From Dokdonella immobilis (GTDB lineage Bacteria; Pseudomonadota; Gammaproteobacteria; Xanthomonadales; Rhodanobacteraceae): a stretch of DNA of 64,000 nt. The notes below the pieces were generated by a model. It worked only from the letters and a program-made list of their open reading frames with translations, was not told the DNA's origin and made no database searches. The stretch is from positions 1-64,000 of the forward strand of contig NZ_FOVF01000012.1 in NCBI RefSeq assembly GCF_900115085.1. The letters run 5' to 3'. Shown piece after piece: positions 1 to 11,215 of the stretch. Numbering within the stretch: position 1 is the stretch's first letter; each line of letters opens with the position of its first letter. Position numbers and translations under genes: made by a program.

Positions 1-2
1 GC

Positions 3-1799
3 TATGTCAACGTGATGCCCGACCTGAAGGTCCGCGACACGGTCACGCGCATGCAACGCGATCCGGACAAGACCGAGATCGACCGTGCGGTCGGCTCCGA
101 AGTGGCGATCCGCGACGGTGCCAAGGCGCTGATCCTGCCGACCATCGCCGAGATCGGCGGGCGCGTACGCATCACCGCCGAGGTGATCGATCCGCAGACC
201 CAGACCACGGTCTACTCCGAGACCGCCGATGGCATCGGCAAGGAATCCATCCTGCCCTCGCTCGACACCATCAACAGCCGCCTGCGCGTGCGACTCGGCG
301 AGGCCCTGGCGACCGTGTCGAAGGAGTCCAGGCCGCTGGAGAAGGTTGCGACGGACAATCTGGATGCCTTGAAGGCCTATTCCCTCGGCAATCACAACTA
401 TGTGAGGGGACAGTTCAAGGAAGCGATGGCCCTCTATCAACAGGCGCTGGCCATCGACACGACGTTTTCCTCGGCCAGTCTCAGGGTCGCCACCATCCAC
501 GCAAGCTCCGGGCGTTCCGACGCCGCCGATGCCGCCCTGCAACAGGCGCTGTCCAGAAGAGAGCGACTATCGCCGCGCGATGTGCTCTATGCCGAGGTCT
601 TGCTGTCTACCCTTCGCGCGCAACCCGACGTGGCGACGAAGTGGTCGGCGCTGGCGGAGACCTATCCGGACTATTTTGCCGGCACTGCGGGCTGCGCATA
701 CTTCAATTGGCGATATGCAAATCATTTCGACAAGAAAACATTGTCGCTGGCAGAAGCCGCGGCGTCGATGAAGAATCCGTCTCGCCAGGCATCGCTGCAT
801 TTGCTCGGAATCCTGCTGGCAGGTGAGGAGCGAGCCGAAGAAGCGCTGCGCACCTTTGCCGAGGCCGAAAGTGAGGGCTTCGTTCGTACCGAATATCACG
901 CCGCCACCCTGGCCTCGCAAAGAAAGTTCGATCAGGCGGCCGCGACACTTGCCCGATCCCCGGACGCCACGGCCTCCGAGAATGCAGTCGTGCGATCTAC
1001 GCGCGGCGCGTTAGAGAGCGCGTTTCTCGTGGACCGTGGATTGCTCGCCGAAGCCATGCGTCATCTCTCCGCCAGCGCGATGGATGTCCCTGCAGGCAAT
1101 GCTTTGTCCGGCTTGTTCGAGGCGATGGAACTGAGCATCGGGGGCGATTTGGGCGACACGAGCGATGCGCAACGGCTGATCCTACTGCGCAAGGCGATGG
1201 CGAGAGCCCTGAGCCTGAAGCAAGTCGCGGCAACGGCCGCTGCAGAGAGTCTTGACGCGCAGATTCTGCTTCTCGCCTACCTGCGAGCGAACCAGGGTGA
1301 TGTCGAGGGGGCGCGGGCCGGATTGGCCGGGCTCGCCGACCAGAACTTTCCCGAGTATTCGGCCAACTACAAGCTGAGGGCCATTGCGAGGGCGGAGATC
1401 GCGCGCGCCAACGGCCAGCCGGATCGGGCCATCGAACAACTGAACAAACTGCTCGACGGATCCGAGTTGTATTTGACGCATGTCGCGCTGCTCAATGCGC
1501 ATTCCGCAGCTGGCCAAGCCCGTATGGCACTTGATGAGGCACGCTGGCTCACCGCCCATCGGGGGCGTGCCTATGCGGAGTACAGTCCAGGAAACCTGCT
1601 CACGACCTTCAACATCAAGCAGGCGAATCTGGCCCTGCTGCGTGCCGCGGAGCTCTCCCGCACCCTCGGAAACCGCAAGGAAGCGGGTGAAATGCTCGGC
1701 GCCTTCCGCAACGCCTGGCCGGACGTGAAGCCGTTCCCCGCGCTGGCCCGCAGGATGACCGAGATTCAGTCGGATTTGGGTCCGGAGGACTCGCCGTAG
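3..1799 (+). CDS. C-terminal part of a TPR regulator, probably the cyclase-type protein of a putative peptide modification system (5' end outside window)
   Basis: The frame is open from the first full codon of the window, so the gene begins upstream and only about 599 residues of its C-terminal part are seen. The first 100 residues look like the TolB/FlgO-like domain found in CadC- and kinase-type regulators (EVAIRDGAKALILPTIAEIG, then VRITAEVIDPQTQTTVYSE). The rest is a long array of TPR-like helices, with one clear repeat at YVRGQFKEAMALYQQALAID. No catalytic domain is visible. Proteins with this tail next to an NHLP-leader peptide and a SagB-like dehydrogenase are annotated, as I recall, as 'putative peptide modification system cyclase', with an N-terminal nucleotide-cyclase domain. 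That domain lies off-window, so the cyclase label is inference from the neighbours. It is convergent with the precursor gene and overlaps it by 34 bases. Confidence 0.7.
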   Translation, partial: YVNVMPDLKVRDTVTRMQRDPDKTEIDRAVGSEVAIRDGAKALILPTIAEIGGRVRITAEVIDPQTQTTVYSETADGIGKESILPSLDTINSRLRVRLGEALATVSKESRPLEKVATDNLDALKAYSLGNHNYVRGQFKEAMALYQQALAIDTTFSSASLRVATIHASSGRSDAADAALQQALSRRERLSPRDVLYAEVLLSTLRAQPDVATKWSALAETYPDYFAGTAGCAYFNWRYANHFDKKTLSLAEAAASMKNPSRQASLHLLGILLAGEERAEEALRTFAEAESEGFVRTEYHAATLASQRKFDQAAATLARSPDATASENAVVRSTRGALESAFLVDRGLLAEAMRHLSASAMDVPAGNALSGLFEAMELSIGGDLGDTSDAQRLILLRKAMARALSLKQVAATAAAESLDAQILLLAYLRANQGDVEGARAGLAGLADQNFPEYSANYKLRAIARAEIARANGQPDRAIEQLNKLLDGSELYLTHVALLNAHSAAGQARMALDEARWLTAHRGRAYAEYSPGNLLTTFNIKQANLALLRAAELSRTLGNRKEAGEMLGAFRNAWPDVKPFPALARRMTEIQSDLGPEDSP

Positions 1800-2071
1800 T
1801 TGACGCGGAGAAGGGGCCAGACCATGCACGCGTGGTCGGTCAGATTCTCTGCGTCCAATTTTGCATGCGCCCTGGCGATCTCGTCCTTAGTGGCCAGTTT
1901 TCCGGGCAAGAGGGCCTGCGCATCCAGCGACGACACGGCGCCATCAGGTACGCCAATCTCCTTCAGTGCGTCGCTGGGACTCGCTTCGAAGCGCGCACGG
2001 TATGCATCGTCGGTCGACAGCTTCTTGAGCAGATTCAGCTCGTGCTCCTTTTGCAGGCGTGTGCTGTTCAT
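1766..2071 (-). CDS. Putative modified-peptide precursor with nitrile-hydratase-like (NHLP) leader
   Basis: A 101-residue protein that appears to be a ribosomal peptide precursor. Residues 8-41 resemble the alpha-subunit nitrile hydratase fold used as leader in NHLP precursors (LLKKLSTDDAYRARFEASP, then SDALKEIGV). After a linker (LATKDEIARAHAKL) comes a tail of about 27 residues with one Cys (C82), Trp85, Tyr92, Thr78 and Ser95/96 as possible modification sites. There is no classical GG cleavage site. The ATG follows a strong AGGGGG ribosome site. An inverted repeat at 2104-2121 (CTGGCC/GGCCAG) lies in the leader transcript. The last ten codons are antisense to the 3' end of the TPR regulator. 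I recall a family 'putative modified peptide' paired with the dehydrogenase next door. No mature product is known to me, and which residues are changed cannot be read from sequence. Confidence 0.75.
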   Translation of the reverse strand: MNSTRLQKEHELNLLKKLSTDDAYRARFEASPSDALKEIGVPDGAVSSLDAQALLPGKLATKDEIARAHAKLDAENLTDHACMVWPLLRVNYGESSGPKSD

Positions 2072-2255
2072 CTATCGTTCCCCCTGAGTGATTTGGCAAA
2101 GGACTGGCCGTTCCTGGCCAGCGAATCAGCGGTCGCGCGGAGCCAGATATAGGACCGGTGCGCGAATCGATGCTGGAGGGGCCGGCCGCGTTGCCCTTGT
2201 GGGCCAACCTCTGCACTGCGTAGGCTAGCAGAACTTTTCCGTTCGGATCGCTTCC
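2072..2255. promoter_or_regulatory. Divergent control region between precursor and dehydrogenase
   Basis: This 184-base spacer must carry both promoters. On the plus strand TTGTGG (2198-2203) and TAGGCT (2221-2226), 17 bases apart, are a fair sigma70-like pair for the dehydrogenase. On the minus strand a TATATC box (around 2146-2151) could serve the precursor, but no good -35 is seen. A 6-bp inverted repeat at 2104-2109/2116-2121 lies between that box and the precursor start. All assignments are by eye. Confidence 0.35.
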
Positions 2256-3449
2256 ATGCAGGTACGCCGTTGCGCGGTGGTTTTTGTTGAACCGAGGGAA
2301 CGACTGGATTTCGATCTGGCGCGGCTGGTCTCCGGCGGAACCGGCGTCGAGACCGTTCTCGAGTGGATCGCGCTGGCGGCCCATCTGGATGACGAATTGC
2401 TGCTTTGTGCCGACGAGATGCAGGCATTGGGGACGATGTCTCCGGAGAAGTGGGTCGATCTGGATTCGATTGCAGACCCAGCGCATCTGCGGGTGCTGCA
2501 AGGCCTTTTGGGCAAGGGCCTGCTGATCAGCGACGCCGGGGCACAGGGCGACGTTCGACGCCGTGACGAAGACGTACGCGCAAGCCATTGGCGTGGCATC
2601 TCGGCCGCGCTGCACCGGCACACGCGCTGGCGGGGGATCGACACACTCGAGGCAGAGCAGCGTTTCGGCCGAGAGAGCGATCGCCCGTTCCTCGATCGCC
2701 TCGGCGCGCCCGAGGCGCCGGTTCGCGAACGCGTCGAGCCTGGCCGGCGTATCGCGCTCGGCAAGGCGGCCGACAGCGGTCTCGAGGCGCTGATCCGGCA
2801 ACGCGTGACATGCCGGAACTGGGACACCACGCGGCCGCTATCGACCGAGGACTTTGCAACTACGCTGTATCGGACGTTCGGCGCTCGCGCAACCAGCGAC
2901 GAACCGGGCATCACGGTGATGAAGCGCGCCGTACCCTCGGCGGGCGGGCTGCATCCGACCGAGGCGTATCTGCTCGTGCAGAACGTCGAAGGCGTGCGGC
3001 CCGGGCTGTACCACTATCACCCGATCGATCACGCCCTCGAGCCGTTGGCCGAAGTGGCCCCCGAAGACAGTGAAGCGCTGGCCCTGCGTCTGGTCGCCGG
3101 GCAGCGTCATTTCATGAAGGCGCATGTCGTGATCGTGCTCGCCAGCCGCTTCCGGCGCACTTTCTGGAAATACCGCAACCACGCCAAGGCCTACCGCGCG
3201 GTGATCCTCGATGCCGGGCATCTGTCGCAGACGCTGTACCTCGCCGCCGCCGAACGCGGCCTCGCCGCGTTCATCACCGCCGCCGTCAACGAGCGCGACA
3301 TCGAGGAGATCTTCGGTCTCGATCCGATGCTCGAGGGCGTGCTCGCCGTAAGCGGATTCGGCTGGCGTGGCGAGTTCGTCGATGAGGTCGAGTTCGATCC
3401 GCTGGGCAGCGTCTGGCCGAATGGCGGCGGGATGAAGAAGGTCGAGTAG
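2256..3449 (+). CDS. SagB-type flavin dehydrogenase, putative peptide maturation dehydrogenase
   Basis: 397 residues. The C-terminal half (about 175-375) is a SagB/nitroreductase-like FMN domain: LIRQRVTCRNWD (179-190), the hallmark PSAGGLHPTEAYLL (227-240), GLYHYHP (250-256), and a KYRNHAKAYR...LDAGHLSQTLYLAA block (305-330) corresponding to the KY-containing region of azoline dehydrogenases. The N-terminal 170 residues are not conserved with classical SagB and may recognise the leader. SagB proteins usually oxidise azolines to azoles, but no YcaO cyclodehydratase is seen here, so the substrate bond is unknown. I recall this branch as 'putative peptide maturation dehydrogenase', found with the NHLP-type precursor and the cyclase/TPR protein. 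The ATG at 2256 has only a weak ribosome site. Confidence 0.85.
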   Translation: MQVRRCAVVFVEPRERLDFDLARLVSGGTGVETVLEWIALAAHLDDELLLCADEMQALGTMSPEKWVDLDSIADPAHLRVLQGLLGKGLLISDAGAQGDVRRRDEDVRASHWRGISAALHRHTRWRGIDTLEAEQRFGRESDRPFLDRLGAPEAPVRERVEPGRRIALGKAADSGLEALIRQRVTCRNWDTTRPLSTEDFATTLYRTFGARATSDEPGITVMKRAVPSAGGLHPTEAYLLVQNVEGVRPGLYHYHPIDHALEPLAEVAPEDSEALALRLVAGQRHFMKAHVVIVLASRFRRTFWKYRNHAKAYRAVILDAGHLSQTLYLAAAERGLAAFITAAVNERDIEEIFGLDPMLEGVLAVSGFGWRGEFVDEVEFDPLGSVWPNGGGMKKVE

Positions 3450-3509: not shown

Positions 3510-4091
3510 CTATTCGAGGTCGTTCGGGCAATCGATGTCGCGCTCGAGTCGCGGTGCCAAGACCACTTGTACGTGGTCTCTTCCAGCGCGCAACAACTCG
3601 CGCGCGCCGGTATCGCCGGTCCCTTCGAGCAGCGAGGCGAACCAGCTTCGCGGCAACAGAGCCGGCACGCCCAGGGTGCCGGCGTAGCCGCTGGCCGTTG
3701 CGCAATCAGGCTTCTCCCGCCAGGTGTCGCGTAAGGCCTGGAGGTGCGCCGCGTCGAGATCGGGTTGATCGGTCAGCACCACCAGTGCGCCGCCACAGCG
3801 CGCGTCCAGTTCGCGAAGGCCATGGCGCAGCGAAGCCGACAGACCTGCGTCCGCGTCGGCGCAGGTCACGCAGCGGCAAGCGAGATCGGCGACCGACGCC
3901 GCGACAGGACCGGGCTCAGGACCACAGACGACCACGCAATCGGCCGGTCCGGTTTGCAGCGCCAGGCGCACCGCACGATGAACGAGGGTTTCGCCGTCCA
4001 CGGTCAGGAGTTGCTTGGCCTGGCCAAGGCGCCGCGAGCGCCCCGCCGCGAGCACGATCACCCCGTGCCGCGCGCTTGCCGGTTCAGGCAT
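3510..4091 (-). CDS. mocA: MocA-like molybdopterin nucleotidyltransferase
   Basis: 193 residues with the MobA-like NTP-transferase fold. The N-terminal nucleotide loop VIVLAAGRSRRLGQAKQLL (about 11-29) is diagnostic, followed by LTDQPDLD, the metal-binding loop of the family. MocA adds CMP to molybdopterin to make the cytosine-dinucleotide cofactor of xanthine-dehydrogenase-type enzymes. The ATG at 4091 (MPEPAS) overlaps the xdhC stop by eight bases, so the two genes are translationally coupled. The frame is open further upstream, but that part is shadow of xdhC. No molybdenum hydroxylase is in the window. Confidence 0.85.
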   Translation of the reverse strand: MPEPASARHGVIVLAAGRSRRLGQAKQLLTVDGETLVHRAVRLALQTGPADCVVVCGPEPGPVAASVADLACRCVTCADADAGLSASLRHGLRELDARCGGALVVLTDQPDLDAAHLQALRDTWREKPDCATASGYAGTLGVPALLPRSWFASLLEGTGDTGARELLRAGRDHVQVVLAPRLERDIDCPNDLE

Positions 4092-5154
4092 GCACGTCGT
4101 GGGCGAGGTAATACTGCATCTGCGCGATGATCGCCAGCGCCGCGGCCTCCGGACCGTCGCCGCCCAGACGCAGTCCGACCGGTGCGTAAAGGCGCGGCTC
4201 GAGTTGGGTCGCGATGATGTCGCCGAGACGCCCGAGCAGGGCGTCACGACGCTCGGGTGGTCCGAGCAAACCGACATAGCCGATGCCCGATGCGCCGAGA
4301 TGACGCAGGTGACGCATGTCCAGGTCGAAGTCATGGCCACCGATGACCGCGGCATCGAAATGGCGCTCGGCGAGCAGCGTCGGCAGCATTTCCGGGGCGA
4401 TGGCATGCAAGCGATCGGCTCCCTCGTTGTCGAAATAAGTATCGCGCTCGGTACGCTGATCGACCACTTCGATGTACCAGCCAAGCAGGCGGGCCATGCG
4501 CACCAAGGTGCGGGATTCGGGTCCCGCCCCGAGCAGGGCAATCCGTGGCGGCGGCGCAAAGCTCAGGCTGGCATGACGGACGAACTCGACCGGACCGGCA
4601 CAGGCTTCACCACGGCTGTTGAACACATGAACCTCCGGTCCGGTGCGTGCCTCGCCGAACCCGAGATCGCCGCCTGCGCCCGGGTCAGCGCCGAGGTCCA
4701 GGCGCAAGCGCAGCCAGGAGCTGCCGACGCAGGCGCTGACCAGGGCATCGCGCAAGGGTGATCCTCGTGCGGGCATCGGCAGCAAGGCGATCTGCATCGA
4801 GCCCAGACTGTCGCTGGGCAGGGCCGATGCGTGGCTGCTGTCGTCGAAGGCGTCGATCTCGACCGTGTTCGCACGGCCGCCCTCCAGCACCGCACGCGCT
4901 GCCTCGAGCAGGCGCTGCTCGAGTTTGCCACCACTGAGCGAACCCGACTGCACGCGCTCGGCATCGACGAGACCCATGGCGCCGCGCGGACGTGCCGAGG
5001 TGCCGGAGCTGCTGACCACGAGGGCAAGCACGCAATCGACCGAGCGTGCAGCCAGTGCCTGCGCGGTCTCGGCGATACCCCGCATGCCGCCGCCAACTGG
5101 CAATGGCGCCAGGCGTGCTGCGGGTGGCGCAACGGCGGACAAGTGACTGGGCAT
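4084..5154 (-). CDS. xdhC: XdhC/CoxI family molybdenum-hydroxylase maturation factor
   Basis: About 356 residues. XdhC proteins bind molybdenum cofactor, help sulfurate it and insert it into xanthine-dehydrogenase-like enzymes. An N-terminal XdhC_CoxI domain is seen (SSGTSARPRGAMGL..., then GSLSGGKLEQRLLEAAR), followed by a C-terminal Rossmann domain (IALLGAGPESRTLVRMARLL; later VIGGHDFDLDMRHLRHLGA and GYVGLLGPPERRDALL). The start is uncertain: ATG 5154 (MPSHLSAV) gives the length used here and ATG 5085 (MRGIAET) is also plausible. Neither has a strong ribosome site. The usual CxCG-type element near the N-terminus appears replaced (GSLSGGK), so cofactor handling may differ. It is coupled to mocA downstream. 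Confidence 0.85.
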   Translation of the reverse strand: MPSHLSAVAPPAARLAPLPVGGGMRGIAETAQALAARSVDCVLALVVSSSGTSARPRGAMGLVDAERVQSGSLSGGKLEQRLLEAARAVLEGGRANTVEIDAFDDSSHASALPSDSLGSMQIALLPMPARGSPLRDALVSACVGSSWLRLRLDLGADPGAGGDLGFGEARTGPEVHVFNSRGEACAGPVEFVRHASLSFAPPPRIALLGAGPESRTLVRMARLLGWYIEVVDQRTERDTYFDNEGADRLHAIAPEMLPTLLAERHFDAAVIGGHDFDLDMRHLRHLGASGIGYVGLLGPPERRDALLGRLGDIIATQLEPRLYAPVGLRLGGDGPEAAALAIIAQMQYYLAHDVHA

Positions 5155-5248: not shown

Positions 5249-6754
5249 TCAGAGCCGGGCCGGGTCGAATCGTCGGAACTGGATCGCTTCGGACAGATGC
5301 ACCCCCTCGATACGGGTAGATCCGGCGAGGTCGGCAATGCTGCGCGCCACCCGGAGCACGCGATGGTATGCCCGCGCCGACAGGCCAAGGCGCTCGACGG
5401 CACGGTCGAGCAAGGCGTGCTCGTGGTCTCCCAAGGCGCAATCGCGCTCGGTTTCGCGATTGTTGAGCCAGGCATTCGGCTTTCCCGAGCGTGCAAGCTG
5501 GCGCTCGCGTGCCGCGACCACTCGTTCGCGGACCCGGACCGAAGGCTCTCCGGGGGTCGATTCGCGCAGCTCGGCGTGGTTGACCCGGGGTACTTCGAGC
5601 TTGAGGTCGATGCGATCGAGCAACGGTCCCGAAATGCGCGCGCGGTAGCGTGCAATCTGGTCCGGTGTGCAGCGACAGCGCCCGCCCGGATCGCCGGCAT
5701 GGCCGCATGGACACGGGTTCATGGCCGCGACCAACTGGAAGCGGGCGGGGAAATCAGCCTGGCGGGCGGCCCGCGAGATCGTGATGTGCCCCGACTCGAT
5801 CGGTTCGCGCAGCACTTCGAGCACGCGGCGGTCGAACTCGGGCAATTCGTCGAGAAAGAGGACGCCGTGATGGGCCAGCGAGACCTCGCCGGGGCGCGGT
5901 ACCGAACCGCCACCGACCAGGGCGACCGCCGAGGCGGTGTGATGCGGCGCGCGAAAGGCGCGCCGCATCCAGTCGTCGATGCCGGCGCCGAGGCCCGCCA
6001 CCGATCGCACCGCGGCCAGTTCGAGCGCCTCGTGCTCGGCCAGTGGCGGCAGGATGCCGGGCAGCCGGCAGGCCAGCATGGTCTTGCCGGTGCCGGGTGG
6101 ACCGACCAGCAGCAGATTGTGCGCGCCGGCGGCGGCGATCTCGAGGGCGCGACGCGCGTGAGGCTGACCGCGCACCTCGGCGAGATCCGGTTCGTTGCTG
6201 TCGCGTGGCTGCGGCTCGGCGCGCTGGGCGACCGGGAGTTCATCGCGTCCGCACAGGTGCGCGCAGACCTCGAGCAGGGTGTCGGCGCAACGCACGTCGA
6301 CGTCGCTGACGAGCGCTGCTTCGGCCGCATTGTCGCGCGGCACGATCACGCTGCGCCCGGTGCGCGCGGCGCGCAGGACGGCCGGCAGCACGCCATGCAC
6401 GGCGCGCAATTCGCCCGACAGGGCCAGCTCGCCGAGGAATTCGTAGCGTTCCAGCGCATCGCGCGGAATGCTGCCGTTGGCGGCCAGGATGCCGAGCGCG
6501 ATCGGCAGGTCGAAACGGCCACCGTCCTTGGGCAGGTCGGCCGGGGCCAGACCGACCGTAACCTTGCGCTGCGGGTAATCGAGCTGGGAATTGAGGATCG
6601 CCGCGCGCACCCGATCGCGGGCTTCGCGCACGGCGGTTTCGGGCAAGCCGACGATCGAGGTGCTCGGCAGTCCGCCCGAGAGATGCACCTCGCAGATCAC
6701 CAGCGGCGCGCTGACGCCCTCCTGAGCACGACTGTAGACAACGGCGAGGCTCAT
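5249..6754 (-). CDS. comM: YifB/ComM family Mg-chelatase-like AAA+ ATPase
   Basis: 501 residues, full family length. The N-terminal ChlI-like domain (GLPSTSIVGLPETAVREARD; GLAPADLPKDGGRFDLPIAL) is followed by the AAA+ core with Walker A LLVGPPGTGKTMLA, the sensor region APHHTASAVALVGGG, Walker B VLFLDELPEF, and the Cys-rich AMNPCPCGHAGD segment. A C-terminal Mg-chelatase domain (ARAYHRVLRVARSIADL) ends the protein. ComM acts as a hexameric branch-migration helicase that helps integrate transformed DNA, so it supports natural competence together with comF at 17 kb. It lies 62 bases downstream of ubiK on the same strand, a likely operon. Confidence 0.93.
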   Translation of the reverse strand: MSLAVVYSRAQEGVSAPLVICEVHLSGGLPSTSIVGLPETAVREARDRVRAAILNSQLDYPQRKVTVGLAPADLPKDGGRFDLPIALGILAANGSIPRDALERYEFLGELALSGELRAVHGVLPAVLRAARTGRSVIVPRDNAAEAALVSDVDVRCADTLLEVCAHLCGRDELPVAQRAEPQPRDSNEPDLAEVRGQPHARRALEIAAAGAHNLLLVGPPGTGKTMLACRLPGILPPLAEHEALELAAVRSVAGLGAGIDDWMRRAFRAPHHTASAVALVGGGSVPRPGEVSLAHHGVLFLDELPEFDRRVLEVLREPIESGHITISRAARQADFPARFQLVAAMNPCPCGHAGDPGGRCRCTPDQIARYRARISGPLLDRIDLKLEVPRVNHAELRESTPGEPSVRVRERVVAARERQLARSGKPNAWLNNRETERDCALGDHEHALLDRAVERLGLSARAYHRVLRVARSIADLAGSTRIEGVHLSEAIQFRRFDPARL

Positions 6755-6816
6755 CGGCGGCAGGGTCGTCAGGTCAGGTGGACAGGATGCGGCCGCTGAC
6801 CGGGCGGCCGCCGTGA

Positions 6817-7077
6817 TCAGTGTCGCGGTTGCGTGTTCAGCGCGGTTTCCAGCGCTGCCAACTGGCGCTCCAGCGCTTCGAGCTTTTCCCGCGTGCGCAG
6901 CAATACGCAGCGCTGCACGTCGAATTCCTCGCGGGTCACGAGGTCCAGCTTGCCGAGCCCGGCCTGCAGGACACTGCGGAAATTCGCGCCGATATCCTCA
7001 CGGGCCTCCTTGAGACCGGGCGGAAGGAGGGCGGCGAGGCGCTGGGCGAGTTCATCGATGCTGCTGGCGGGAATCAT
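6817..7077 (-). CDS. ubiK: UbiK accessory factor of ubiquinone synthesis (BMFP family)
   Basis: 86 residues, typical size. The N-terminal amphipathic helix (MIPASSIDELAQRLAALLPP) is followed by a coiled coil (REEFDVQRCVLLRTREKLEA, then LERQLAALETAL), as in the YqiC/UbiK family. The protein forms a trimer at the membrane and assists the Ubi synthesis complex under aerobic conditions. FDVQ and the coiled-coil heptads are the strongest signs. It precedes comM on the same strand, a frequent neighbour in gammaproteobacteria. Confidence 0.9.
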   Translation of the reverse strand: MIPASSIDELAQRLAALLPPGLKEAREDIGANFRSVLQAGLGKLDLVTREEFDVQRCVLLRTREKLEALERQLAALETALNTQPRH

Positions 7078-7363
7078 GGCAAACCTCGGTACAAGCGAAG
7101 GGTCAAATGGTACTCGTCGAACGCGCGCTCGGCTGCCCGGTGGGACGATTCGAGGCGTACGTCGCGGCAGTCCCGTGACGGGGGTGCCGGCTGCGCCGAC
7201 GCAAAGCGTCGACGCGGCCGGCTGCAGATCCCTGCGTGCGTCCTTGCCTGCCTCCCTGCGTGCATCCCTGCGCCTGCGTCAGCGGTAGTGCCGACGGGCC
7301 ATCCCTTGAGCCAAAGTCTAGGCAGCCGTTGGCAATCGCGCAGTGGGCGAATTCGGATTTTCC

Positions 7364-7381
7364 TGTAGGAAATTTCCTACA
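7364..7381. promoter_or_regulatory. Perfect 18-bp palindrome upstream of glnK (candidate operator)
   Basis: TGTAGGAAA/TTTCCTACA is a perfect two-fold symmetric site centred between 7372 and 7373, in AT-richer sequence than its surroundings. It sits just upstream of a possible -35 box at 7385-7390, which suits a dimeric activator, or a repressor if the promoter lies elsewhere. It does not match the NtrC consensus (TGCACC-N-GGTGCA) or a sigma54 -24/-12 promoter, the usual control of glnK in gammaproteobacteria. Confidence 0.5.
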
Positions 7382-7384
7382 CGG

Positions 7385-7412
7385 TTCCCGCCACACGGCA
7401 TTCCGCTATAGT
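7385..7412 (+). promoter_or_regulatory. Candidate sigma70 promoter of glnK
   Basis: TTCCCG (7385-7390) and TATAGT (7407-7412) are 16 bases apart and end 35 bases before the glnK ATG. The -10 box is good and the -35 box weak, which would fit a promoter helped by a factor bound at the adjacent palindrome. Confidence 0.4.
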
Positions 7413-7447
7413 CGGCACCGCCGCTACCGCAATGACAGGACACGCCG

Positions 7448-7786
7448 ATGAAAATGGTCATGGCGATCATCAAGCCGTTCAAACTGGATGATGTGCGCGA
7501 GGCACTGGCCGACATCGGCGTGCAGGGCATCACGGTCAGTGAAGTCAAGGGATTCGGCCGCCAGAAGGGCCATACCGAACTCTATCGTGGTGCCGAGTAC
7601 GTCGTCGATTTCCTGCCCAAGATCAAGATCGAGATCGCGGTCGCCGAGGACCAGCTCGAGCGCGTGGTCGAGGCCCTGCGCCAGAGCGCCAACACCGGCA
7701 AGATCGGCGACGGCAAGATCTTCGTCTGGCAGCTCGACCAGGTCATGCGCATTCGCACCGGCGAGCTCGACGACGACGCCCTCTAG
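7448..7786 (+). CDS. glnK: Nitrogen regulatory protein P-II
   Basis: 112 residues, the exact family length. P-II trimers sense ATP/ADP, 2-oxoglutarate and (by uridylylation) glutamine, and control glutamine synthetase adenylylation, NtrB and AmtB. The T-loop is complete (FGRQKGHTELYRGAEY) with Tyr51 as the uridylylation site. The signatures VKGFGRQKGHTELYRG and ANTGKIGDGKIFV are both present. No amtB or glnA follows. It is given the glnK/glnB-type name only because the two paralogues cannot be told apart from one gene. The ATG has AGGA eight bases upstream. The TAG stop lies in the CTAG that abuts a mobile repeat element. Confidence 0.95.
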   Translation: MKMVMAIIKPFKLDDVREALADIGVQGITVSEVKGFGRQKGHTELYRGAEYVVDFLPKIKIEIAVAEDQLERVVEALRQSANTGKIGDGKIFVWQLDQVMRIRTGELDDDAL

Positions 7787-7904
7787 TGTGGTGTCCCGCA
7801 ATCTCCATCAAATAATTCCGGCGTCTTTCACGGCGATACCGCGTTGCTCGTCCTCGCCATGAAATCCATCCGAAATTTCTTCGCGTTATTTGCGGGACAC
7901 CACA
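7787..7904 (-). mobile_element. MITE-like element, copy A (internally deleted)
   Basis: A 118-base element with perfect terminal inverted repeats TGTGGTGTCCCGCAA / TTGCGGGACACCACA. It carries no coding sequence. Its reverse complement matches the 158-base element at 48325-48482 almost base for base, apart from a single 40-base block missing here. The missing block is bounded by CGCCAT repeats in the longer copy, so a slippage deletion is likely. Flanks are CTAG (7783-7786) and CTTG (7905-7908), consistent with a 4-bp CTAG target duplication with one later change. The left CTAG contains the glnK stop codon. Confidence 0.8.
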
Positions 7905-8452
7905 CTTGCGAGGCGCTGAACACGTGGCGCAATCGTCACGACACCTGCCTGCGCGCAGATCACGGCGCACAGGCGCAGACAGACGGGCCGTCTTTCAATA
8001 TGGCGTAACAAAGAGCCGCGCGCAGGCAGGCGTCGCCCAAGCAATGGATTGAACGGAACAAGGGTGGTGTTCAGAGCCTCCCCAGGCGCGAAGTCTCGCC
8101 GCAATGGTCTTTGGCTGGCGTGTCGTGGTGCCTGGAATCGGCGCCCTGTGCTGTTGTTCCCCGATCTTCGCGGTCTTTGTCTTGCGGCCGGCCCAGTGGA
8201 TGGGGGTTTTTGCCAGAACTGTCCTTCGACTTCGCTGCGCTACGCTCAGGACGAACGGGAGTGATGGGCGCTTGCCGTTTCTTCCCCCGCGGGCGGGAGG
8301 TGCCGACTGCGCGCGACGGGATCGAGCGCGAACGCTGACAGCCGGCCCGAAGGGCGAACGCGAGGGTTGCCGGGAATAAACCGGATCAGGACGCTTCCGC
8401 TTCCGCTTAGGTTTAGGCTTCGGCCTGGGCTTCGGCTGGGGCTCTTGCTCTT

Positions 8453-8477
8453 CCTTCTCCCGCATTGCGGGAGAAGG
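8453..8477. repeat. Hairpin repeat of the CTCCCGC..GCGGGAG type
   Basis: CCTTCTCCCGCA and TGCGGGAGAAGG form a perfect 12-bp inverted repeat separated by one base, followed by GTGCCAAAGGCGGATGAGGG. This arrangement is a widely dispersed intergenic repeat in proteobacteria. It may also act as a transcription roadblock. Confidence 0.6.
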
Positions 8478-8759
8478 TGCCAAAGGCGGATGAGGGGCCT
8501 TGGCTGGCGCTTCTACTTGGGCGCACAGGTTGCGCGCTAACCGGGCCCCGTAAGCGGTGGCGGCCGGGCGAAGCAAAGGTCCGCAGGGTGGGCGCGAGGG
8601 ATCGCGCCCCGTTCGCTGCCAGCCACGGAGGTGTTGTCAGCGAACCCCCGTAGCCCGGCTGCGCAATCGCAGGGCAGGATGCACGGAGACCACCGCTTTG
8701 GGGTGGCCTTTCTCTTGGATACTTCCTTGACTCCTGGCTTCCTGCCCTTCGTCCCTCGG

Positions 8760-9168
8760 GCGCGTGTGAAAGCCTTTGCCATGACGGATGCACCGCGTAG
8801 CGATGCACGAACAAGCGAAAAGGCCAAGGCACTGGTTCCCTGCCAGGCTGAAGTCCGGTCCGTCCTGAGCCTGTCGAAGGGCAGGGACGACGGCGTGGAA
8901 GTTCGAAACGTGGAGAAAGAGCATCGCGCCTGAAGGCGCTCCTACAGTGACAACAATATGACTCGCTCGCCGAATGCGAGTGAAAGCTCTGCTCCTATCC
9001 CAAGAATGCGCCGCGCAGCGATGCACGAACAAGCGGAAAGGCCAAGGCACTGGGTCCCTGCCCGGTCGAAGTCCGGCCTGTTCGGAGCCTCTCGCAGGTC
9101 AGGGACGGCGGCGTAGAAGTTCGAGTCGTGCGGAGAGAGCATCGCGCCTGAAGGCGCTCCTACGATGG
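8760..9168. repeat. Imperfect tandem duplication (period about 222) with REP-like palindromes
   Basis: Two units share GCGATGCACGAACAAGCG, AAAGGCCAAGGCACTGG and GAGCATCGCGCCTGAAGG in the same order, at about 8798/9018, 8818/9040 and 8919/9141. Each unit ends with GCGCCTGAAGGCGC followed by TCCTAC, a small palindrome resembling REP-type repeats common in this bacterial order. Units differ by many substitutions, so the duplication is old or the repeat was acquired twice. Confidence 0.65.
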
Positions 9169-9272
9169 AAGCGAGGTGACTCGGGCATTGATGACGAACT
9201 CACTGCTGTGCCGGGGAAAATGCGCCGCAGCAGTGTGCAAATCCGGGCTCCGGACCGAGGCAGTGCAGACCA

Positions 9273-9848
9273 TCAAGGGCCCGGAACCACCTGGCGGGCC
9301 ACGATCCATATCGCCAGGGCCGCAAACAGTGCCGCAGCGCTGTAGCGCGCCGTCCGCAATGGCAGGCGCTGCGCAAAACGCGCACCGAGCCAGACTACCG
9401 GTACGTTGGCCAGCAACATGCCGATCGTGGTACCGGCGACGACCTCCCAGAGTGGCGAATAGCGGGCGGCCAGCACGACCGTGGCGACCTGGGTCTTGTC
9501 GCCCATCTCGGCGAGGAAAAAGGCGATCACCGTGGCGACCAGCACCCCATGTCCGGCCATGCCGCGCACGTCATCGCCATCGACCTTGTCGGGAACCAGC
9601 GTCCACAGCGCGATGGCGAAGAATGACAACGCCACGATCCAGGTCAGCGTCGAGGGCTGCAGCCATGCTGCGATCGCGGCCCCGAACCAGCCGGCCAATG
9701 CGTGATTGAGCAGGGTCGCGACGAAGATGCCGATGCAGATCGGCAGCGGCCGGCGATATTTCGCAGCCAGGATCAGGGACAGCAACTGGGTCTTGTCGCC
9801 GATCTCGGCGATCGCCACGGCCGCGGTCGAAATGAACAGGGTTTGCAT
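9273..9848 (-). CDS. TMEM165/GDT1 (UPF0016) family manganese exporter
   Basis: 191 residues forming two homologous three-helix halves, each opening with the family signature: AIAEIGDKTQLLSLILAA (about 13-30) and FFLAEMGDKTQVATVVLAA (about 110-128). The acidic E-x-G-D-K-T motifs form the cation site. Bacterial members export Mn2+ (MneA in Vibrio) and protect against Mn excess. The yybP-ykoY riboswitch directly upstream supports a manganese role. The ATG at 9848 follows GGAG about nine bases upstream. It is a single gene with no operon partner on either side. Confidence 0.92.
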   Translation of the reverse strand: MQTLFISTAAVAIAEIGDKTQLLSLILAAKYRRPLPICIGIFVATLLNHALAGWFGAAIAAWLQPSTLTWIVALSFFAIALWTLVPDKVDGDDVRGMAGHGVLVATVIAFFLAEMGDKTQVATVVLAARYSPLWEVVAGTTIGMLLANVPVVWLGARFAQRLPLRTARYSAAALFAALAIWIVARQVVPGP

Positions 9849-9859
9849 GGGTACTCCGA

Positions 9860-9918
9860 CGGGCCGGGGCGATCAAGGACGCGATGATCCACACGCGCGG
9901 CCCCGGCCCGGGATCATC
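9860..9918 (-). promoter_or_regulatory. Expression platform with two mutually exclusive hairpins
   Basis: Between aptamer and start codon, CGGGCCGGGGC (9860-9870) is perfectly complementary to 9900-9910, and GATGATCC (9883-9890) to 9911-9918. The two stems interleave, so only one can form at a time. The 11-bp stem ends three to four bases before the GGAG ribosome site and could mask initiation. The other stem would release it. This suggests translational, or mixed, control. Confidence 0.6.
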
Positions 9919-9924
9919 ACGTGC

Positions 9925-10056
9925 GAACCAGCGGTCTTGCCGGAATCCGCGAGGCGCATGACTGCGCGCGGATACGTTCGCGCCATGGCGTGGTCGCCAA
10001 GTGTGTTGACGCGGACCCCGCAGCGTTTCGATGCGGTCGACTACTCCCCGTTGGAG
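9925..10056 (-). promoter_or_regulatory. yybP-ykoY manganese riboswitch aptamer
   Basis: Reading the minus strand, the conserved blocks appear in the right order: AACGGGGAGTAG (about 10053-10042), GTCAACACACTTGGCGACC (about 10013-9995) and CCGGCAAGACCG (about 9942-9931). These are the two Mn-binding internal-loop segments and the closing strand of the yybP-ykoY class, which in Lysobacterales and Bacillus binds Mn2+ and raises expression of Mn exporters. Its position just before the UPF0016 gene is the classical arrangement. Confidence 0.9.
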
Positions 10057-10123
10057 CGGTGAGGATTCTACCAGATCGGCCATGTCGGCCGAAACCGCGC
10101 CCCTGGTCGCCTTTCGGTTCGGT

Positions 10124-11215
10124 TCAGTACCACTCGATCAGGGAAAGGCCGACGCCCGCGTACCAGGCGCGATGGTTGTAGTCGATCAGGCTCTCGCCGT
10201 AGCCGTTGAACACCTGGACATGACCGCGCAGTGGCGGCGCAATCGGGAACGCCCAGTCGAACTGCACGGCGCCATGGCTGCGATCACCACCACGCAGCGA
10301 GTGGCGCAGCAGCAAGGCAAACTGCGAGTCGCCGGCGACGCGGATGATTTCGACGTCGCCGCGCCCCATGTAGTCGCTGATGTCGGGATTGTTGTCGTCA
10401 CCGAACTCGAGCACGCGCCACCACGGCCGCAGCGTGATCGTCCAGTTTTCCTTTTCGAGTCCGATCGAGGCCGTGGCCCTGTTCCAGCTGCGCGACAGTG
10501 GATCGCTGCGCCCGTTCGACTGGTGCACGAGGCCGAAGCCGAGCAGCCGGGCGTTCCAGCCGAGCACGTCGTAGTGGGTCCGGAAGATCAGATTGGCATC
10601 GGGTTCGTAATTGGTTTCACGGAACGGACGCGAGCGCTGGGCATTGAAGATCTGCCAGTGCGAGACCTGGGTATAGCCCATCCAGAAGTCGCCGTTGTCG
10701 CCGAAGATGTCGTCGAGGATCTTGGTCTTCAGGCTGAGCTGGTACTTCAGTTCGCCGCGCGTGATGTCTTCCGGTTCGGTCACGGTGTTTTCGGGTGCGG
10801 GCGAACTCGGCAGCCGGTTCGTGCGCGAGGTGTAGTACGGCATCAGGTAAATCGGGCGATACGGCCGGATGCAGAACGGCGCGGCCTTGCCGGACGCCTC
10901 GTTCGCGGCATCGAGTTCCCAGCGCGAATCGAGCAGCGAACTGGGCGGCCCCTTGTCGCATCGGCTGTTGGGCATCGCGGACGACCGCGCAAAGACATCG
11001 GTCGCCGAAAGCGCTCGCGCCTGTTGCGTATCGGCATCGGATTCGGCAAAGGCACGGTCGTAGCAGGCAAGTCGCGCATCATCGGCCTCGATGCCGGCGC
11101 AGTGGCTTGCGTCCGCAACCGTCCCGGCAGCGTGCGCGGTCGTGCCCGACGCCAGCATCAGGAGAAGCACGAACTGCAGCGCGCGGCTCACGTCACGGTA
11201 TTCCATGAATAGCAA
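10124..11215 (-). CDS. pldA: Outer membrane phospholipase A
   Basis: 363 residues with an N-terminal signal segment (VLLLMLASGTTAHA) and a beta-barrel. The catalytic triad of OMPLA is visible at the exact family spacing: His231 and Ser233 in LVHQSNGRS and Asn245 in SRSWNR (spacing +2 and +14, as in the E. coli enzyme). YTQVSHWQIFN (181-191) is another family block. The enzyme is a calcium-dependent phospholipase A1/A2 that degrades mislocated phospholipid in the outer leaflet. A region of about 80 residues before the barrel contains the common DARLACYDRAF motif. The start may be ATG 11215 or ATG 11206. Confidence 0.92.
   Translation of the reverse strand: MLFMEYRDVSRALQFVLLLMLASGTTAHAAGTVADASHCAGIEADDARLACYDRAFAESDADTQQARALSATDVFARSSAMPNSRCDKGPPSSLLDSRWELDAANEASGKAAPFCIRPYRPIYLMPYYTSRTNRLPSSPAPENTVTEPEDITRGELKYQLSLKTKILDDIFGDNGDFWMGYTQVSHWQIFNAQRSRPFRETNYEPDANLIFRTHYDVLGWNARLLGFGLVHQSNGRSDPLSRSWNRATASIGLEKENWTITLRPWWRVLEFGDDNNPDISDYMGRGDVEIIRVAGDSQFALLLRHSLRGGDRSHGAVQFDWAFPIAPPLRGHVQVFNGYGESLIDYNHRAWYAGVGLSLIEWY

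What the first reader, a model, noticed from the sequence alone, without database searches (positions are those of the whole stretch)
3..3449. Compact NHLP-leader peptide / SagB dehydrogenase / TPR-cyclase locus with no ring-forming enzyme in sight
A 101-residue NHLP-leader precursor, a SagB-type FMN dehydrogenase and a TPR protein (probably the cyclase-type regulator) sit together. SagB enzymes normally act after a YcaO cyclodehydratase, but none is in the window, nor any LanM, radical-SAM or ABC exporter. Either the partner lies upstream of the window or the dehydrogenase oxidises an unmodified residue (for example a C-terminal or side-chain bond near Cys82/Trp85). I recall families named only 'putative modified peptide', '...cyclase' and '...dehydrogenase', with no known product.
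Basis: partly seen in the sequence, partly recalled or inferred. Interest (0 to 1): 0.85.

Follow-up and report, generated by a model that had tools for sequence, protein, structure and literature searches.

The report
Peptide-and-receptor cassette of a cGMP pathway
A small peptide gene, a probable maturing enzyme and the sensor half of a membrane protein that makes cyclic GMP occur together and vary together, which suggests a bacterial peptide-signalling system feeding a known cyclic GMP pathway whose trigger has not been identified.

Summary
Precursor, dehydrogenase and TPR protein match TIGR04509, TIGR04511 and TIGR04510. YcaO is absent from all 43 dehydrogenase-bearing genomes searched, the window's included. 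The window starts at a contig end that cuts the 'TPR protein'; whole relatives are class III nucleotidyl cyclase, one membrane helix, outward TPR. This is the family of Xanthomonas XC_0250, a proven guanylyl cyclase; a homologue of its cGMP-responsive partner XC_0249 lies just upstream in 47 of 58 loci. In Xanthomonas, between precursor classes, partner and cyclase domain stay 90-94% identical while sensor half, precursor and dehydrogenase fall to 31-52%, as one DNA block between conserved flanks: the pattern of polymorphic peptide-pheromone systems. Best reading: the dehydrogenase, whose N-terminal domain resembles leader-binding domains of RiPP enzymes, matures a signal peptide sensed by the receptor cyclase, giving cGMP, then cyclic di-GMP. 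Shown: membership, linkage, co-occurrence, cassette polymorphism. Inferred: chemistry, secretion, ligand binding. Main difficulty: no signal peptide, no generally conserved exporter. My searches of open-licence papers found none connecting these parts.

The parts
3..1799 (+). C-terminal part of a receptor-type class III nucleotidyl cyclase (TIGR04510): extracytoplasmic linker domain and TPR repeats; cyclase domain and membrane helix are cut off by the contig end
   Evidence: TIGR04510 positions 278-813 of 814; full-length relatives have a weak N-terminal Guanylate_cyc match, a TM helix and TPRs; window = start of contig C37
1766..2071 (-). 101-aa NHLP-related precursor peptide (TIGR04509); conserved leader (about residues 1-43), variable tail
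   Evidence: 60.8 bits, cut-off 34; DNA aligns to the closest relative L063 from base 1944 onward (leader part and dehydrogenase) but not over the tail; dN/dS median 0.13 in ten pairs of Xanthomonas relatives (for the window against L087 dS was saturated)
2072..2255 (.). divergent intergenic region between precursor and dehydrogenase
   Evidence: coordinates; no CRP-like palindrome better than shuffles
2256..3449 (+). SagB/McbC-type FMN dehydrogenase (TIGR04511) with an N-terminal domain of about 100 residues that folds like RiPP leader-binding domains

Best explanation
The locus is the signal-and-sensor part of a polymorphic peptide-signalling system. The NHLP-type leader presents the precursor to the N-terminal domain of the SagB-like FMN dehydrogenase, which oxidises the variable C-terminal tail without a ring-forming enzyme (a C-alpha/C-beta desaturation is my guess). 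The tail, released and brought outside the inner membrane by an unknown route, is sensed by the outward-facing TPR half of its neighbour, a transmembrane class III guanylyl cyclase. The cyclase makes cGMP, which drives the cNMP-binding-GGDEF protein to make cyclic di-GMP. Shown here: family membership, gene linkage, co-occurrence, kept cyclase and effector residues, membrane topology by sequence, and joint variation of sensor half, precursor and dehydrogenase against a constant cyclase domain and effector. Shown in print for Xanthomonas campestris: GTP to cGMP by XC_0250 and cGMP stimulation of XC_0249. Inferred: that the dehydrogenase modifies this precursor, the chemistry, the export, and that the peptide is the ligand.
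Confidence: 0.55

Rival explanations
1. The peptide is an antibacterial RiPP; the TPR-cyclase is its feedback sensor or immunity switch, and cassette variety reflects competition rather than communication.
For: Pseudomonas sp. Os17 cluster OS3 pairs an NHLP-like small protein (Os1348) with a SagB-type dehydrogenase, without sagC or sagD homologues, and loss of Os1348 lowers antibiotic activity (PMC7726476, passages); the Duganella precursor of this family scores 34.7 bits (cut-off 40) on the Os1348 model. Polymorphic cassettes also fit bacteriocins.
Against: No peptidase or immunity gene among the 21 of 24 largest flank clusters that were scanned, and exporter genes only in a minority; no PADLOC match. 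Linkage and co-occurrence with a signalling cyclase are close.
Confidence: 0.17
2. The precursor never leaves the cell: it is a small regulatory protein, and the dehydrogenase is an FMN redox sensor or partner that adjusts cyclase activity.
For: No signal peptide, no general exporter; tails without a conserved reactive residue.
Against: The variable half of the cyclase is the outward half, not the cytoplasmic half where such a protein would act; the dehydrogenase keeps the Lys-Tyr stretch and has a domain folded like leader-binding domains.
Confidence: 0.15
3. The precursor matures to a redox cofactor or electron carrier, as in PQQ or mycofactocin systems (recalled), and the cyclase reports its supply.
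For: Peptide precursor plus flavin dehydrogenase; isocitrate lyase and malate synthase genes nearby in 26 and 21 of 60 loci.
Against: A cofactor should have a conserved core; no column after residue 72 of the window precursor reaches 60% in 109 precursors, and the cassette is highly variable.
Confidence: 0.06
4. Ordinary thiazole/oxazole pathway whose YcaO lies elsewhere or was missed.
For: TIGR04511 and TIGR03605 similarity and fold similarity to BmdC, ThcOx and McbC.
Against: YcaO in 0 of 43 dehydrogenase-bearing genomes, four of them of one contig; the same search finds it in 1 of 20 genomes without the dehydrogenase and in 5 of 14 control genomes.
Confidence: 0.02

Closest known systems
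Xanthomonas campestris XC_0250 / XC_0249 cGMP pathway (An et al. 2013, PMC3770947)
   Same: Same cyclase family (in four relatives the same length and six residues at the published positions) and the same kind of adjacent cNMP-binding-GGDEF effector
   Different: The paper's main text has no occurrence of peptide, dehydrogenase or nitroreductase as words and calls the TPR domain uncharacterised; here that domain varies together with a precursor and a dehydrogenase
ComQXPA of Bacillus (PMC4408185, passages)
   Same: Modifying enzyme, peptide precursor and receptor adjacent and highly polymorphic (passages; that the receptor's sensor half is the variable part and the output is constant is recalled)
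   Different: Output is a guanylyl cyclase and cyclic di-GMP, not histidine kinase and response regulator; enzyme is a SagB-type dehydrogenase, not an isoprenyl transferase; no extracellular activity shown
Os1348-Os1351 cluster OS3 of Pseudomonas sp. Os17 (PMC7726476, passages)
   Same: NHLP-like small protein with SagB-type dehydrogenase and no sagC/sagD homologue found by its authors
   Different: Also has an acetyltransferase, a putative peptidase and nearby efflux genes; the window precursor is below the Os1348 model's cut-off (22.7 versus 40 bits)
TIGR04509 / TIGR04510 / TIGR04511 (NCBIfam)
   Same: Family models for exactly these three proteins, named as a putative peptide modification system
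   Different: The names give no pathway; the 'cyclase' is a nucleotide cyclase, not a peptide cyclase
SagB/McbC azoline dehydrogenases
   Same: Fold and the Lys-Tyr stretch (its catalytic role is recalled)
   Different: No YcaO partner in the 43 genomes searched

Membership tests
TIGR04509 NHLP-related RiPP precursor | score over curated cut-off | tested here: met
   60.8 versus 34 bits; a profile of 11 relatives hits only nitrile hydratase chains in the PDB, 7 of 7, weakly (E 0.19-1.5)
TIGR04511 dehydrogenase | score over curated cut-off | tested here: met
   479 versus 240 bits
TIGR04510 cyclase | score over curated cut-off | tested here: inconclusive
   377 versus 400 bits with the N-terminal 277 positions missing at the contig end; two intact relatives score 836 and 1206 bits
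XC_0250-type guanylyl cyclase | published essential residues kept in the family | tested here: met
   D41 105/105, D71 106/106, A150 106/106, A161 101/106; L157 69/106 and L73 45/106 vary; not testable in the window gene, whose cyclase domain is missing
XC_0250-type guanylyl cyclase | makes cGMP | not testable with these tools
   shown only for XC_0250 (PMC3770947)
XC_0249-type effector | adjacent gene with cNMP and GGDEF domains | tested here: met
   47 of 58 loci; not adjacent in the window's genome, where a homologue lies at C46
SagB/YcaO azole RiPP (TOMM/LAP) | YcaO cyclodehydratase | tested here: not met
   0 of 43 genomes, 0 in own genome
RiPP enzyme with leader-binding (RRE-like) domain | winged-helix domain of that fold | tested here: inconclusive
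NHLP RiPP with C39 peptidase exporter | Peptidase_C39 domain in the genome | tested here: not met
   absent from own genome and from 9 of 9 genomes of its genus given; present somewhere in 17 of 43 dehydrogenase-bearing genomes
ComQXPA-type peptide quorum sensing | histidine kinase receptor and response regulator | tested here: not met
   receptor is a nucleotidyl cyclase; a propeller hybrid kinase stands beside precursor and dehydrogenase only in Duganella L073
ComQXPA-type peptide quorum sensing | polymorphism of peptide, enzyme and sensor half against a constant output | tested here: met
   27 Xanthomonas loci, 46 pairs; between species, not yet within a species
ComQXPA-type peptide quorum sensing | secreted peptide with group-specific activity | not testable with these tools
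   needs bench work
Known anti-phage defence system | PADLOC model match | tested here: not met
   0 of 4 proteins

The most novel reading that the evidence does not exclude
A ribosomal, dehydrogenase-modified peptide is a polymorphic pheromone whose receptor is a transmembrane guanylyl cyclase: a bacterial counterpart of animal peptide-receptor guanylyl cyclases, with signalling groups defined by exchange of a sensor-peptide-enzyme cassette, and the unknown input of the Xanthomonas cGMP / cyclic di-GMP pathway.
Probability: 0.45. Interest if true: 0.92.

Novelty: new variant of a known kind. Interest (0 to 1): 0.8.

Why it matters
The Xanthomonas cGMP pathway was described in 2013 with a TPR domain of uncharacterised function, and a 2019 review repeats this. 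The neighbourhood names a concrete candidate input, a ribosomal peptide, and a candidate modifying enzyme, and predicts signalling groups that can be read from sequence. It would also give a SagB-like dehydrogenase a role without a ring-forming enzyme, and three 'putative' families a function. If the peptide-signal reading is wrong, the variable cassette still needs an explanation.
Full report
1. What is in the sequence. The window is G000:C37:1-64000, the start of a contig. Precursor 1766-2071 (-), dehydrogenase 2256-3449 (+) and the open-ended TPR protein 3-1799 (+) match TIGR04509 (60.8 bits), TIGR04511 (479 bits) and TIGR04510 (377 bits over positions 278-813 of 814).

2. The truncated gene. 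In L063 the order is cyclase, precursor, cyclase, precursor, dehydrogenase. Its full-length cyclases have a weak Guanylate_cyc match (E 0.0032 and 0.0011, under the curated cut-off) and TPRs. A hydrophobic segment follows the cyclase domain; at least one is found in 105 of 109 family members (more than one in 12), with more K/R before than after it in 103 of 105, which puts the cyclase inside and the TPR half outside. In L087 (same contig as L063) the front halves of the two cyclases are 97.9% identical over 1213 nt while the TPR halves share 27% of residues. Contig C12 of the window's genome is colinear with the left flank of L063 (85.6% over 2536 nt, 92.4% over 1374) and ends inside the first cyclase. 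So the window's genome very probably has the two-copy locus, and the assembly broke in the repeated front half; this is inference from synteny, and only one precursor was found in the assembly.

3. No ring-former. YcaO: 0 in G000; 0 of 43 genomes with the dehydrogenase and 1 of 20 without (the 43 are part of the 53 genomes over the TIGR04511 cut-off). Peptidase_C39: 17 of 43 with and 19 of 20 without the dehydrogenase, 0 of 9 in the window's genus.

4. Conserved company. TIGR04511 over its cut-off is in 53 of 197 genomes of the family, TIGR04510 at E 1e-60 in 58, TIGR04509 at E 1e-5 in 56. All 53 are among the 58. Of the other five, G037, G110 and G132 have dehydrogenase fragments, G079's locus reaches a contig end, and G128 has the cyclase without precursor or dehydrogenase match. 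Reading down the list, each TIGR04509 match lies on a contig with a TIGR04510 match, except in G141, where the end of a cyclase lies beside it (L108). The commonest flanking gene is a cNMP-binding-GGDEF protein (41 of 60 loci by clustering; Pfam); by profile it is upstream within 465 nt in 47 of 58 loci that hold a cyclase. Of the 11 without, five are cut by contig ends and six are of the window's genus. All 10 genomes of that genus searched have a homologue (two beside the cyclase; eight not, at 62-64% identity, one of these with a stop inside), in G000 at C46:21682-22635. There it lies beside genes that look like aceA and aceB; isocitrate lyase and malate synthase precede the module in 26 and 21 of 60 loci. 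The window's module thus looks as if it had moved away from its effector. Other flank clusters include an ABC ATPase (10 of 60), ABC-2 membrane protein (6) and MacB-like permease (6), in one or two genus groups.

5. Link to a proven pathway. PMC3770947 (outline, abstract, passages, first of four parts of the text, Discussion) shows that XC_0250 of X. campestris makes cGMP from GTP, that XC_0249 binds cGMP and then makes more cyclic di-GMP, that mutants form less biofilm and are less virulent, and that the TPR domain is of uncharacterised function. Its main text has 0 occurrences of words beginning with peptide, dehydrogenase, nitroreductase or XC_0251 (figures and supplement not seen). Ten of 44 Xanthomonas cyclases show all six published residues at the published numbers from some start codon, four of them with exactly 886 residues; one of these four loci, L183, was run through NCBIfam and gives TIGR04510 1206, TIGR04511 580 and TIGR04509 113 bits. 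Over 109 family members D41, D71 and A150 do not vary, A161 little, L73 and L157 do. In the effectors E146, F73 and L91 do not vary; N145 is Asn in 46 of 47 Xanthomonas proteins and Ser in 41 of 44 others, so cGMP preference outside Xanthomonas is less certain. All 17 loci fetched from one Xanthomonas genus group (18 of 20 genomes had the dehydrogenase) and 25 of 29 from the other (30 of 35 genomes) have effector, cyclase, precursor and dehydrogenase together. The four exceptions: a dehydrogenase split by about 13 kb (G228), cyclase, precursor and dehydrogenase in pieces (G244), a remnant at a contig end (G246) and a locus with only a 54-residue dehydrogenase match (G250).

6. The cassette. 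Twenty-seven Xanthomonas loci fall into six precursor classes, drawn at 60% precursor identity. Between classes the effector stays at 90.0% and the cyclase domain at 94.1% (medians), while linker, TPR, precursor and dehydrogenase drop to 52.1, 31.1, 33.0 and 45.6%. In four between-class comparisons printed along the protein the drop is at about residues 200-240, the membrane segment. At DNA level, 46 pairs between five classes (11 loci) align left of it and again 93-338 nt after the dehydrogenase; in 39 pairs no piece over 150 nt aligns in between, in 7 there are pieces of 192-1152 nt at 66-74%. In L201 against L196 the flanks are 92.9 and 95.4% identical with nothing alignable between. Within classes dN/dS medians are 0.09 (effector), 0.06 (cyclase), 0.08 (TPR), 0.13 (precursor), 0.10 (dehydrogenase); dS in TPR exceeds the cyclase in 10 of 10 pairs, dehydrogenase exceeds effector in 9 of 10 (values above 1 are near saturation). 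Fast protein change alone would not raise dS; old alleles exchanged by recombination would.

7. Pairing of precursor and sensor half. Over 98 members the distance correlation is 0.78 for TPR-precursor, partial 0.53 given cyclase, linker and dehydrogenase; cyclase-precursor keeps 0.25, dehydrogenase-precursor 0.11, linker-precursor -0.07, and dehydrogenase-TPR 0.43 given cyclase and linker. Permutation does not remove shared ancestry. In two-copy loci, TPR follows the precursor lineages in 9 of 9 within-genus locus pairs; of all 28 pairs 21 do, against 15 of 28 for the linker and 7 of 21 for the cyclase domain. Linkage alone could produce this.

9. Known and new. The families are named, the cGMP relay is known, and an NHLP-like protein with a SagB enzyme and no cyclodehydratase has a precedent in Pseudomonas sp. 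Os17. I found no text that joins the peptide and dehydrogenase to the cGMP pathway or reports the cassette: searches of open-licence papers; other literature was not searchable. In Duganella (L073) precursor and dehydrogenase sit beside a propeller-type hybrid histidine kinase, and no cyclase of this family was found in the fetched 21 kb, a single case that would fit an exchange of the sensor.

10. Verdict. The better question is what the peptide tells the receptor cyclase. Confidence 0.55 in the peptide-signal reading.

Noticed in passing
G000:C12:1-386 (L043) and window 1-382: Contig C12 ends in the start of a cyclase of the same family and is colinear with the left flank of L063: the window's genome probably has a second cyclase-precursor pair lost in an assembly gap.
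   Followed up: partly
L212 (G000:C46:15000-28000), 6677-11001: cNMP-binding-GGDEF gene beside genes that look like aceA and aceB, away from the window.
   Followed up: yes
L073:7439-16197: Duganella: TIGR04509 precursor and dehydrogenase beside a Reg_prop hybrid histidine kinase and an NHL-repeat protein, without the cyclase.
   Followed up: partly
L207, L209, L210, L211: Xanthomonas genomes in which the cassette is interrupted or in pieces, in L209 with the cNMP-GGDEF gene still whole; described only.
   Followed up: no
window:4084-5157: XdhC/CoxI-type protein on the minus strand; the frame next to it at about 3510-4100 looks like a nucleotidyltransferase by eye.
   Followed up: no
window:8084-9164: Short stretches shared with the matching part of L063, some in several places; looks like dispersed intergenic repeats.
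   Followed up: no
L046, L083, L100, L104: Two or three precursors per cyclase in some loci, often with similar tails.
   Followed up: no
L078, L090, L077: ABC ATPase, ABC-2 membrane protein and MacB-like permease genes within a few kb of the module in a minority of loci: possible exporters.
   Followed up: no
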